DNA from: Tardiphaga sp.
GTDB lineage: Bacteria; Pseudomonadota; Alphaproteobacteria; Rhizobiales; Xanthobacteraceae
Direction of reading: 5' to 3'
Length of the DNA: 64,000 nucleotides
Assembly: GCF_028290495.1 (NCBI RefSeq)
Contig: NZ_JAQGJT010000017.1
Location: forward strand, 46,040-110,039
Position numbers and translations under genes: made by a program. The notes under the pieces are model-generated. The model saw only the letters and a list, made by a program, of their open reading frames with translations. It was not told the origin of the DNA and did no database searches. This document shows, piece after piece, positions 35,578-39,097 of the stretch (the stretch's first letter is position 1; every line of letters begins with the position of its first letter).

Positions 35578-35669
35578 ATGCGCCCTGAACTGCTCAATCC
35601 CCTGTTCGTTCCGGTCACCAGCCTGACCGGGGTCGGGCCGAAGCAGGACAGACTGCTGCGGTTCCTGCT
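35578..35669 (+). pseudogene. recG: Stranded 5' fragment of recG
   Basis: MRPELLNPLFVPVTSLTGVG then PKQDRLLRFLL closely matches the start of the intact recG at 36992. Exact blocks are the first 23 bases and the 24-base block 35646-35669. The frame then runs into unrelated sequence. It stands in the native recG position, divergent from sdhE, so it is probably the original 5' end cut off by the inserted unit. An in-frame ATG at 35560 could start a 76-residue chimeric peptide. Confidence 0.85.
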
Positions 35670-35745
35670 TGCAAGGTTGATCGAGCATTCTGACCTCGCG
35701 TCCGCTACTTCACCCTATCGAACGCCGTGGCCTGTTATGGTTATA

Positions 35746-36843
35746 TTACAAAGGGGAGGCTTGAGCAGGAGCCAGAACTCCACCCAATAGATGGGGCAAC
35801 AACTCTGGTCGCAATTTAGACCACCTCGACAACATCCGGTCCGAGTAGATATTCCAAGGGGCACGTTCACTTCCATCGAAGAAAAATCCTCGGAGATCGC
35901 CGTGATTTTGAAGAATGCGCGACCCCGTCAAGGCCTCCTCTGCGGCAAAGATGCACTCCGCAGCTTCGGCAAGCCAGGATTGCAGATCAATTCCAATGCC
36001 GGGCTTTTGCTGCAAAAAGGCGCCTCCCCACGTCGCTAAGCTAGAGCATCGGATTAAGGCAGGTGGATGAGAGTATGCGAGAAGATTATCTACTGACCAA
36101 TCGGCTCGATCGAAGGTTCTCATAATCGCGTACAAGCTCAGAATAAACAGACGAAAAGCTCCCATGTTGTTGTTTAGTACGGGATGATGAGGGTGCTGCG
36201 CTGAATATCCGATAATCCAACTGACCATACGACCAGACGCAAACGAATCAGCGTCCATCTCGAGGGTATGCTGTGTCAAGTTGTTGTCTTGGAGATTTGT
36301 GAGTTGCATTGCTTCCGCAGAAAACATGCCGTGAGAAATACGATTAGAGAGGTGAAGATGACCGTTCTTGATGTGCGCCAACTCATGATTGACCAGCCAC
36401 AAGAATGCTGAGGTTACCATCGTTGAGAGAACGACGACTTCATCAGGATGGTCTATCTCACCCAATGATTCCGGCAGTCCCAGAAGTCTACGAACAGCGG
36501 GATGCGCAATCAGCTTTGGAAAGATCACGTTTGATTGCAACGCACCTAAGAAAATAGCAATGTAATAGGTGTTTGGGACTGCTGGCGTGTATGCAGCAAA
36601 GGCATTCGCATTCGCCGACAAAACAAAGCAATGCTGCACATCAACGGAGATTTGAAAGCGAGTTTTCCATGCGTTGATTTCATACTTTGCAGACAGGTCA
36701 CGTGGCGATATGAAATTCCGACTTTCATCATCGACTAGATCCGGCGTCACTATGGGCGCGACAACACCCTGTTTCATCAAGATGCTTTCGATAAATCCGA
36801 AGTGCTTAGAGTCAAGCGATCCAATGCGCGAACTATCGACCAT
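35746..36843 (-). CDS. HExxH metallopeptidase-like protein carried in the recG insertion
   Basis: A 365-residue protein. NHELAHIKNGH (His153, Glu154, His157) is a gluzincin zinc site, and LEMDADSFASG supplies a third ligand at Glu195 with Asp199, as in M48-type ExxxD motifs. An upstream stretch with small residues and NTYYIAIFLGALQ could be a strand/helix of the fold; no clear TM segments or signal peptide are seen, so it is probably cytoplasmic. It is lower in GC than its neighbours, indicating transfer. The role is unknown; a lone peptidase cargo suggests a defence or regulatory protease. Confidence 0.7.
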   Translation of the reverse strand: MVDSSRIGSLDSKHFGFIESILMKQGVVAPIVTPDLVDDESRNFISPRDLSAKYEINAWKTRFQISVDVQHCFVLSANANAFAAYTPAVPNTYYIAIFLGALQSNVIFPKLIAHPAVRRLLGLPESLGEIDHPDEVVVLSTMVTSAFLWLVNHELAHIKNGHLHLSNRISHGMFSAEAMQLTNLQDNNLTQHTLEMDADSFASGRMVSWIIGYSAQHPHHPVLNNNMGAFRLFILSLYAIMRTFDRADWSVDNLLAYSHPPALIRCSSLATWGGAFLQQKPGIGIDLQSWLAEAAECIFAAEEALTGSRILQNHGDLRGFFFDGSERAPWNIYSDRMLSRWSKLRPELLPHLLGGVLAPAQASPL

Positions 36844-36991
36844 TTGCTGTCTCGCCCAGATAAAAATACACTCTGCAACTGATATTCCCTCGCTACTCGT
36901 ATACTAGGTTTCTCGTTTAGCTTTTTTGACTTTTTCCGATACTTCAATGCTATTCGTTGACGCCCCACTCTCAAGCCCTACTTGACAATAA
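36844..36991. promoter_or_regulatory. Divergent intergenic region in front of the rebuilt recG
   Basis: 148 AT-rich bases between the starts of the metallopeptidase gene (minus) and recG (plus). It must now supply the recG promoter, because the native one is 1.4 kb away. A TTGACA lies at about 36980, too close to the ATG to act as a -35. No promoter can be fixed by eye, and no good ribosome-binding site precedes recG. Confidence 0.4.
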
Positions 36992-39097
36992 ATGCGCCCT
37001 GAACTGCTCAATCCGTTATTCGCGCCGGTTACCACCATGCCCGGCATCGGACCGAAGCTGGACAGACTGCTGCGGTTCCTGCTCGACCGCGACGACACCC
37101 CGCGGATCGCCGACCTGCTGCTGCATCTGCCGGTCAGCGTGATCGACCGCCGCGCCCGGCCGAAGATCCGCGACGCCGAGATCGGCAAGATGGTGACGCT
37201 GGAGGTCACCGTTGACCGGCATCGCCCCGCCCCCACCGGTCGCTCGCGCGCGCCGCATCTGGTCTATGCCAGCGACGACACCGGCGATGTGATCCTCACC
37301 TACTTCCGCGCCTATCCCGGCCAGATCGAGAAGATCCTGCCGGTCGGCGAGAAGCGGTTCGTCTCCGGCACCACGCAATTGTTCGACGGCATTCTGCAGA
37401 TCGTGCATCCCGACCGCGTCATCGACGAGGAAGGCTTTGCCAAGCTCAGCGGCATCGATCCGGTCTATCCGCTGACCCAGGGCCTCGCGATCGGGGCGTT
37501 GCGCCGCGCAGTCGGCCTTGCTTTGCAGAGACTGCCGGCGCTGCCGGAATGGATCAGCCCGGAGGTGATGCGACGCTGCAGCTTTCCGTCGCTGAGCGAG
37601 GCGCTGCACCGCGTCCACGTCCCCGTCGAGATGACCGACATCCTGCCGGAAGGGCCGTTCTGGTCGCGGCTGGCGTTCGACGAGTTGCTGGCCGGGCAAC
37701 TGGCGCTGGCGCTGGTCCGCGCGCAGGTGCGCCGTCCCGCCGGCGACCGCAATGCCGGCGACGGCCACCTGCGGCGAAAGATCATGGATGCGCTGCCTTA
37801 CGCGCTGACCCGATCGCAGCAGGAAGCCTCCGCAGCGATCGCGGAAGACCTGACCAAGCCAATGCGCATGCTGCGGCTGCTGCAGGGCGACGTCGGCTCC
37901 GGCAAGACCGTGGTGGCGCTGCTTGCCGCCGCGGCCGTCGCCGAAGTCGGCAAGCAGACCGCTTTGATGGCGCCGACTGAAATTCTGGCGCGCCAGCACA
38001 TCAAGACCATTACGCCGCTCGCCGAGCGCGCCGGGATGCGGGTTGCGATCCTGACCGGCCGCGAGAAGGGCCGCGAGCGGAAGGATATTCTGTCGCGCCT
38101 CGCGGCCGGCGAGATCGACATGCTGGTCGGCACCCACGCGCTGATCCAGGATGACGTGATCTACCATTCGCTGGCGCTGGCAGTAGTCGACGAGCAGCAC
38201 CGCTTCGGCGTCCGCGAACGCCTGGCGCTCACCAACAAGGGCAGCGCCGTCGATGTGCTGGTGCTGTCGGCGACGCCGATCCCGCGCACGCTGGTGCTGA
38301 CCTATTTCGGTGACATGGATGTCTCGGAACTGCGTGAAAAGCCCGCCGGCCGGCAGCCGATCGAGACACGGACGGCATCGAGCAGCAGGTTGCAGGAAGT
38401 CATCGACCGCGTCGGCCGGCAGATCGACGCCGGCAAGCTGGTGTACTGGATCGTGCCGCTGGTCGAGGAATCCGAAATGGATGGCCCGAAACTCACCAAT
38501 GCGGAGGAGCGTTTCGAAAGCCTGCAACAACGTTTCGGCGACAAGGTCGGGCTCGTGCACGGCCGGATGCGCGGCATCGAGAAAGATCAGGCGATGGCGC
38601 GTTTCGCGTCGGGCGAAACGCAGGTCCTTGTCGCCACCACCGTGGTCGAGGTCGGCGTCGACGTGCCGGCGGCCACCATCATGATCATCGAGAACGCCGA
38701 ACGTTTCGGTCTGTCGCAGCTGCACCAGCTGCGCGGTCGCATCGGCCGCGGCTCGGAGGCCTCAACCTGTCTGCTGCTGTACAGGGAGCCGCTCGGCGAG
38801 ATCGCCGCCAAGCGCCTCAACGTCATCAAGGAAACCACCGACGGCTTCCGCATCGCCGAGGAAGACCTGAAACTGCGCGGCGAAGGCGACGTGCTCGGCA
38901 CCCGCCAGAGCGGTTTGCCGGGCTTCCGCATCGCGCGCGCCGAGGTGCACGCACAACTCGTGACGCAGGCCCGCGACGAAGCACTGCGGATTCTGCAGGA
39001 CGACCCCAAGCTCAAGGGCGAACGCGGCGAAGCGCTGCGGTGTCTGCTGTATCTCTACGAGCGCGACGAGGCGCTGCCGCTGATCGGCGCGGGGTGA
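36992..39097 (+). CDS. recG: ATP-dependent DNA helicase RecG (with replaced 5' end)
   Basis: A 701-residue protein of normal length that remodels stalled forks and Holliday junctions. It has the N-terminal wedge/OB domain (to about 280), Walker A GDVGSGKT near 299, DEQHRFG near 397, LSATPIPRTL, and the C-terminal helicase lobe with QLHQLRGRIGRG and GEGDVLGTRQSGLPGFR. The first ~30 codons are a second, diverged copy of a fragment 1.4 kb upstream, so this reading frame was rebuilt by the inserted unit. It should be functional. Confidence 0.95.
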   Translation: MRPELLNPLFAPVTTMPGIGPKLDRLLRFLLDRDDTPRIADLLLHLPVSVIDRRARPKIRDAEIGKMVTLEVTVDRHRPAPTGRSRAPHLVYASDDTGDVILTYFRAYPGQIEKILPVGEKRFVSGTTQLFDGILQIVHPDRVIDEEGFAKLSGIDPVYPLTQGLAIGALRRAVGLALQRLPALPEWISPEVMRRCSFPSLSEALHRVHVPVEMTDILPEGPFWSRLAFDELLAGQLALALVRAQVRRPAGDRNAGDGHLRRKIMDALPYALTRSQQEASAAIAEDLTKPMRMLRLLQGDVGSGKTVVALLAAAAVAEVGKQTALMAPTEILARQHIKTITPLAERAGMRVAILTGREKGRERKDILSRLAAGEIDMLVGTHALIQDDVIYHSLALAVVDEQHRFGVRERLALTNKGSAVDVLVLSATPIPRTLVLTYFGDMDVSELREKPAGRQPIETRTASSSRLQEVIDRVGRQIDAGKLVYWIVPLVEESEMDGPKLTNAEERFESLQQRFGDKVGLVHGRMRGIEKDQAMARFASGETQVLVATTVVEVGVDVPAATIMIIENAERFGLSQLHQLRGRIGRGSEASTCLLLYREPLGEIAAKRLNVIKETTDGFRIAEEDLKLRGEGDVLGTRQSGLPGFRIARAEVHAQLVTQARDEALRILQDDPKLKGERGEALRCLLYLYERDEALPLIGAG

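What the first reader, a model, noticed from the sequence alone, without database searches (positions are those of the whole stretch)
35578..37083. A metallopeptidase gene inserted into recG with duplication and replacement of the recG 5' end
The first ~30 codons of recG occur twice. One copy is stranded at 35578-35669 in the native position divergent from sdhE. The other, diverged in the middle, fronts the intact recG at 36992. The ends share exact blocks of 23 and 24 bases. Between the copies lies one lower-GC gene with an HExxH...ExxxD zinc site, and no recombinase. A cargo that restores the coding frame of its target is known for SXT-type elements in prfC, but I know of no such single-gene unit in recG. 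It may be a new minimal defence or regulatory insertion.
Basis: partly seen in the sequence, partly recalled or inferred. Interest (0 to 1): 0.85.

Follow-up and report, generated by a model that had tools for sequence, protein, structure and literature searches.

The report
Lit-like protease gene spliced into recG
In one bacterial genome near Rhodopseudomonas, a single gene for a zinc protease distantly related to the E. coli anti-phage protease Lit sits inside the start of the DNA-repair gene recG, whose start is present twice so that the recG reading frame stays whole; the unit likely arrived as a small mobile element without its own integrase, and the protease is predicted to act against phages.

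Summary
The first 92 nt of recG occur at 35578-35669 (stranded beside sdhE) and 36992-37083 (fronting a 701-aa recG), 79/92 identical, around a 1.3-kb, 48% GC segment with one gene of note. The interval is uninterrupted in all 13 genus relatives where both flanks were on the fetched stretch; no second recG start was seen in 80 named loci or in a capped listing of 391 family genomes. The gene encodes a rare zinc peptidase (HExxH...EMDAD) whose profile and predicted fold resemble E. coli Lit, the EF-Tu-cleaving phage-exclusion protease, though it fails Lit's family cut-offs. Lit itself rides on e14, which replaces the end of icd. A second Lit-like gene (L028) abuts guaA, whose 3' end is duplicated beside an integrase remnant. 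Best reading: a minimal, integrase-less, attachment-site-flanked unit of the kind that replaces the end of its target gene, like dusA islands and e14. Which copy is native is open: against the nearest relative the stranded copy is host-like on its left and recG from about codon 15, but the signal is weak (p 0.06-0.10) and vanishes when a third relative is added. No recombinase acting in trans and no second recG element were found. New variant of a known kind.

The parts
35118..35522 (-). sdhE (left host flank)
   Evidence: Pfam Sdh5 E=2e-21; next to recG in relatives
35402..35577 (.). host sdhE-recG intergenic stretch with the presumed original recG promoter, now cut off from recG
   Evidence: aligns with relatives; 79% to G007 over 156 nt
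35578..35669 (+). stranded recG start (left attachment-site-like copy), codons 1 to 31
   Evidence: 79/92 to the intact start; letters of G007 and G009 at nt 25, 27, 39, not at nt 44-68
35617..35620 (+). possible exchange point in the stranded copy (between recG nt 39 and 44)
   Evidence: best crossover position against G007 with or without G009; p 0.06-0.10, lost when G016 is added
35646..35669 (+). 24-nt identical block GGACAGACTGCTGCGGTTCCTGCT, copy 1
35670..35745 (.). left non-coding end of the unit
   Evidence: recG homology ends at 35669; no other copy in the own genome
35746..36843 (-). Lit-like zinc peptidase gene, 365 aa
   Evidence: HExxH; PADLOC Lit E=9e-4; NCBIfam Lit E=5e-4, far below its cut-off; AlphaFold2 pLDDT 88.5, pTM 0.92
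36373..36387 (-). HELAH zinc-binding motif (residues 153-157)
36247..36261 (-). EMDAD motif (residues 195-199), presumed third zinc ligand
   Evidence: E195, D197, A198, D199 invariant in 17 of 17; sequence
36844..36991 (.). 148 nt between the divergent peptidase and recG starts; now the upstream region of recG
   Evidence: sequence; no plus-strand sigma-70-type site found here
36992..37083 (+). intact recG start (right attachment-site-like copy)
   Evidence: letters of G007 and G009 from nt 44 on
37031..37034 (+). possible exchange point in the intact copy
37060..37083 (+). 24-nt identical block, copy 2
36992..39097 (+). recG, 701 aa, open

Best explanation
A 1.4-kb unit carrying one gene for a Lit-like zinc peptidase and no integrase gene lies inside the start of recG, flanked by two diverged copies of that start; it likely entered as a circle bearing a look-alike of the recG start, through one site-specific exchange within that start (perhaps near codon 13-15) that a recombinase supplied from elsewhere would have driven, and the peptidase is predicted to act as a phage-triggered abortive-infection protease. 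Shown: the duplication, the empty site in relatives, the open recG frame, the zinc motif, and the allele pattern of the two copies. Predicted: the Lit-type fold. Inferred: the circle, the recombinase in trans, the exchange point, the new promoter for recG from the 148 nt upstream, and the defence function. By analogy with E. coli Lit, the peptidase would stay latent until a phage structural protein appears and then cut a host factor such as EF-Tu; trigger and target are untested.
Confidence: 0.55

Rival explanations
1. One-off homologous or illegitimate recombination: foreign DNA with a recG start and a neighbouring peptidase gene was taken up and joined by RecA-type exchange in the recG start, with no site-specific system involved.
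For: The two copies are alike along all 92 nt, beyond what an attachment core needs; the possible switch lies inside the homologous stretch; other cargo sits between sdhE and recG in 9 of 78 named loci, so the neighbourhood tolerates foreign DNA; no integrase found for it; the unit is a singleton.
Against: 92 nt at 86% identity is short for RecA (general knowledge). The guaA case has an integrase remnant beside it and the icd case is described as site-specific. An ordinary double exchange would not leave a stranded recG start.
Confidence: 0.3
2. Same kind of unit, but the exchange took place in the 3' block (codons 24-31), so that the stranded copy is wholly the native start and the fronting copy wholly the element's.
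For: The 24-nt 3' block is identical in both copies and absent from all 93 relatives; of 715 relative pairs with an equally or more diverged middle only 23 share an identical block. e14 is annotated as beginning at the gene-internal end of the icd repeat. G016, nearer than G009 in the upstream gene (88.0% against 85.1%), sides with the stranded copy at 4 of the 7 sites from nt 44 to 68.
Against: From nt 44 to 68 the fronting copy, not the stranded one, agrees with G007 and G009, including T at nt 68, seen in 0 of 11 other genus members and 0 of 80 named loci. G007 is the nearest relative in the upstream gene, the intergenic stretch and recG. This reading needs a donor close to G007/G009 plus an extra change in the host.
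Confidence: 0.25
3. The peptidase is not a defence protein but a housekeeping or regulatory protease that happened to be moved.
For: The family is very rare and untested; its predicted fold resembles M48-type peptidases such as BepA; only the region around the active site aligns with Lit.
Against: The related gene has lower GC than its locus in 7 of 7 loci measured, two of them among phage structural genes; patchy: 4 of 296 family, 6 of 397 order, 3 of 385 class, 8 of 398 phylum genomes, the own genome counted each time.
Confidence: 0.25
4. Assembly artefact joining two strains at the 24-nt repeat.
For: Draft genome of 231 contigs with 5.95% contamination; the repeat is 24 nt.
Against: Both flanks are collinear with the same relatives; the join of block to cargo must exist in some read; resolving the repeat the other way would give an empty site plus a circle, that is, the excised form of the same unit.
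Confidence: 0.04

Closest known systems
dusA-associated islands (PMC4482086; abstract, sections 15 and 18 and passages read)
   Same: Insert in the 5' end of a housekeeping gene; the island supplies a new 5' end and upstream region; imperfect direct repeats flank it.
   Different: Those islands carry their own tyrosine integrase, the one feature they share; here there is one peptidase gene and no integrase, and the target is recG.
e14 prophage in icd, carrier of lit (PMC6379469, passages; L141)
   Same: Carries the Lit peptidase; replaces the end of its target gene and leaves a diverged second copy (icdC).
   Different: 15-kb prophage with integrase, 3' end of icd; here 1.4 kb, 5' end of recG, and a distant Lit relative.
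CIME, cis-mobilizable element (PMC5704250, passages)
   Same: Flanked by attachment-like repeats, no integration or transfer genes.
   Different: CIMEs are decayed ICEs or IMEs that keep attL and attR; no remnant of such an element was seen in the 1.3 kb and att function is untested.
Phage-exclusion protease Lit of E. coli (PMC3014915, passages)
   Same: HExxH zinc site, similar order of main secondary-structure elements in the models, conserved HP...R stretch after the active site.
   Different: 365 against 297 aa, with extra helices; similarity confined to about 112 columns; scores far below the Lit family cut-off; trigger and target unknown.
recA-targeting island of Vibrio cholerae (PMC4405046, abstract and section 6)
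   Same: Mobile element inserted in a recombination gene whose function it is said to replace.
   Different: Brings a whole divergent recA and an integrase; it inserted in both orientations in a plasmid test and its ends are inverted repeats.

Membership tests
Lit / peptidase U49 | HExxH zinc motif with downstream acidic ligand | tested here: met
   H153, E154, H157 and E195 invariant in 17 of 17 aligned members
Lit / peptidase U49 | score above the curated family cut-off | tested here: not met
   NCBIfam NF007238 19.2 bits against 274; Pfam none at E<=1, although the protein search lists a precomputed PF10463 label for it; the PF10463 genome search rang in 0 of 14 controls, so it says nothing
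Lit / peptidase U49 | same predicted fold | tested here: inconclusive
   Order of the main elements is similar, with extra elements here, and both models match BepA best, but the two models were not superposed on each other
Lit / peptidase U49 | EF-Tu cleavage triggered by a phage head peptide | not testable with these tools
   needs a bench test
Gene-end-replacing integrative elements (dusA island / e14 type) | insertion in a conserved gene that is uninterrupted in relatives | tested here: met
   13 of 13 genus relatives with both flanks are empty
Gene-end-replacing integrative elements (dusA island / e14 type) | direct repeats at both borders and a restored reading frame | tested here: met
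Gene-end-replacing integrative elements (dusA island / e14 type) | own integrase | tested here: not met
   one gene of note in the unit; 76 and 148 nt remain at its ends
CIME | flanking att-like repeats without integration or transfer genes | tested here: met
CIME | att sites functional and descent from an ICE or IME | not testable with these tools
   no excision data; no remnant seen

The most novel reading that the evidence does not exclude
Lit-type proteases travel as minimal one-gene units that carry a look-alike of a housekeeping gene's end (icd, guaA, and here the start of recG), insert without an integrase of their own by borrowing one in trans, and repair the gene they break: single-gene defence cassettes hitchhiking on other elements' integrases, with recG as a new attachment gene.
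Probability: 0.25. Interest if true: 0.72.

Novelty: new variant of a known kind. Interest (0 to 1): 0.5.

Why it matters
If right, recG joins the short list of protein genes whose ends serve as attachment sites, and the smallest such unit known to me (recalled, not searched) would carry one defence-type protease and nothing else. That makes a concrete question testable: can one-gene defence cassettes move by borrowed integrases? The Lit family, known mainly from one E. coli protein (recalled), would also gain a distant branch with a confident fold model and a conserved active site, ready for tests of trigger and target.

Tried and rejected
Searched for further recG insertions: 119-nt recG start in 18 genus genomes (15 with a match, two matches only in the window's own); own recG start against the upstream sequence of 80 named loci (0 second copies at E<=1e-3; sdhE found in 78); fused SdhE+RecG query in 391 family genomes (385 with a match; 8 with more than two). 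The seven besides the window's own were looked at: extra hits are on other contigs, second copies of whole genes, or recG split in pieces. Limits: only the best-scoring rows were printed, a short or diverged stranded start would miss the E-value limit, and one without sdhE could hide among two-match genomes.

Searched for a mobile relative: element DNA in the genus (own genome only), its left end in the own genome, RecG start in phages (none) and plasmids (six records with one match each, two annotated as recG and four without annotation), RecG in viral contigs (none), two 18-mers of the recG copies in viral contigs (none). The 24-nt block near 15 integrase hits of this genome: best 15-18 of 24, shuffled controls 16-18; slightly above their own controls in L147, L150 and L154.

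Exchange point: the test depends on the relatives used. G007 alone p=0.06, G007+G009 0.10, G007+G016 0.78, all three 0.38. After this check I raised the rival with an exchange in the 3' block from 0.20 to 0.25 and worded the exchange point as 'perhaps'.

Rejected: IS or transposon (no inverted repeats of 12 nt or more at the borders); an Rfam RNA in the unit (none at gathering score); the RtcB-RF1 cargo in other loci as the same phenomenon (no recG duplication). Foldseek alone gave no significant PDB match; in BFVD one, A0A8S5NTQ9, an uncharacterized myovirus protein (E 3.8e-10), insignificant for the Lit model. Canonical Lit has no match in the phage collection and is in 282 of 5426 E. coli genomes.

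Literature: searches showed no paper on an element in recG; of the 3 papers I looked into one (PMC4494060, passages: recG only as a marker gene), of the 8 listed into one more (PMC4482086); the others I judged by their listing.
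Full report
WHAT IS THERE. Between sdhE (35118-35522, minus strand) and recG (36992-39097, plus strand) the window holds two copies of the recG start, 35578-35669 and 36992-37083, identical at 79 of 92 positions. The 1.3 kb between them (GC 0.483 against 0.619 for the window) has one gene of note, 35746-36843 on the minus strand, 365 aa. The intact recG reads 701 codons without a stop and matches the RecG domains. 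No integrase or transposase is in the unit, and no inverted repeats of 12 nt or more lie at its borders.

IT IS AN INSERTION. In the genus, 18 genomes here, 15 have a match to the recG start and only the window's own has two. I fetched 14 relatives; 13 had both genes on the stretch, all 13 with an uninterrupted interval of 166-254 nt against 1590 nt here; the fourteenth contig ends inside recG. The inserted DNA matches only the window's own genome among the 18. In 80 named loci (Bradyrhizobium, Rhodopseudomonas, Afipia and others) no second recG start was found upstream. In 391 family genomes 385 had a match to a fused SdhE-RecG query and 8 had more than two; the seven besides the window's own were explained by other contigs, second whole genes or split genes. 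Only the best rows of that search were printed. The unit is thus a singleton in what I could search.

WHICH COPY IS NATIVE. G007 is the nearest relative in the gene upstream (90%), in the intergenic stretch (79%) and in recG (88%); G009 is second in recG (86%) and first in sdhE; G016 is second in the gene upstream (88.0% against 85.1% for G009) and lower in recG (82.8%). At the 13 sites where the two copies differ, sites 25, 27 and 39 have the letter of G007 and G009 in the stranded copy; sites 44, 46, 49, 54, 55 and 68 have it in the intact copy; site 60 matches G009 in the intact copy; sites 32 and 33 go with G007 in the stranded and with G009 in the intact copy; site 24 goes with the intact copy. 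T at site 68 is found only in the intact copy, G007 and G009. A scan puts the best single exchange after site 39 (166 summed matches, against 162 if the intact copy were wholly native and 153 if the stranded one were), but random phasing of the sites reaches this in 9.5% of trials; with G007 alone p is 0.06, and with G016 added the signal is gone (0.38 to 0.78), for G016 sides with the stranded copy at 4 of the 7 sites from nt 44 to 68. The 24-nt block at the far end is identical in both copies and absent from all 93 relatives; among 715 relative pairs with a middle at least as diverged, 23 share an identical block. I cannot tell whether this reflects an attachment core, gene conversion or a donor of the same lineage.

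THE COMPANY IT KEEPS. Related genes are rare and patchy: 4 of 296 family, 6 of 397 order, 3 of 385 class and 8 of 398 phylum genomes, overlapping samples that each count the own genome. Among 15 other loci checked, one (L028, same family as the window) has the same architecture: a Lit-like gene 72 nt beyond the stop of guaA, a PIN-type toxin and Phd-type antitoxin pair, and then a second guaA 3' end (324 nt, 91.7%), followed 110 nt later by the first 30 residues of a tyrosine recombinase. That frame as a whole has no Pfam match, but 37 residues of it match 1984 plasmid records; of the 12 listed, the best 73% identical, 8 are annotated there as integrases and 4 have no annotation. E. coli lit lies in e14, between icd and icdC, the 165-nt second icd end (153/165); e14 is described as integrating in icd site-specifically and supplying its 3' end (PMC6379469, passages). 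Two relatives sit among head and tail genes of provirus contigs (L119, L121); others lie beside ftsY-like and ilvH-like genes (L136, L137). So a Lit-type gene is found with a replaced gene end in three unrelated places, in two of them with an integrase or its remnant beside it, and without a repeated gene end in the other loci checked.

HOW IT LIKELY WORKS. The pattern fits a known principle: an element recombines within the end of a housekeeping gene and brings a substitute for the end it cuts off. dusA islands do this at a 5' end, with imperfect repeats and a new upstream region (PMC4482086, sections 15 and 18). Here I infer a small circle with a recG-start look-alike that recombined with recG; recG kept its frame and probably gained a new promoter in 36844-36991 (no plus-strand site was seen there). 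As no integrase is present, another element's recombinase would be needed; the review of CIMEs describes att-flanked elements that lost their integrase and can move together with newcomers at the same site (PMC5704250, passages), and action in trans is my inference. I could not find the helper. Homologous recombination of foreign DNA is the main rival. For function, Lit is latent until the T4 Gol peptide binds EF-Tu and then cuts EF-Tu (PMC3014915, passages); a similar sensor-protease role is my guess here, untested.

NOVELTY. The principle is known; the new points are recG as target, a one-gene unit without integrase, and the recurrence of Lit-type genes at replaced gene ends. Paper searches showed no element in recG in the held library, which lacks most subscription journals.

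Noticed in passing
L034, L039, L042, L060, L065, L074, L077, L084, L107 (sdhE-recG interval): In 9 of the 78 named loci where sdhE was found the interval is 1.1-5.0 kb: an RtcB and RF-1/PrfH-like pair in several (L107 confirmed by Pfam; the others by reading), glycosidase-like genes in L039 (by reading), a 54% GC stretch in L077; none has a recG duplication.
   Followed up: partly
L028 4077-9012: guaA 3' end duplicated around a Lit-like gene and a PIN/Phd-type toxin-antitoxin pair, with an integrase remnant beyond: probably a tandem of decayed elements at guaA.
   Followed up: partly
L026 8260-9578: A frameshifted homologue of the peptidase between genes that read like TRAP-transporter genes, enclosed by a 32-nt inverted repeat 1255 nt apart, 88% complementary.
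   Followed up: no
L118 8678-10942: Two adjacent genes with similar starts, the second matching the peptidase family, on a provirus contig with a terminase gene.
   Followed up: no
window 15512-20079: A tyrosine recombinase gene (18823-20079, minus; Pfam PF00589) near a large gene that reads like a primase/RepA-type ATPase (label from reading it, no call): probably a separate integrated element.
   Followed up: no
L121 7114-14035: A 38-nt direct repeat (89%) spans the Lit-like gene on a provirus contig.
   Followed up: no
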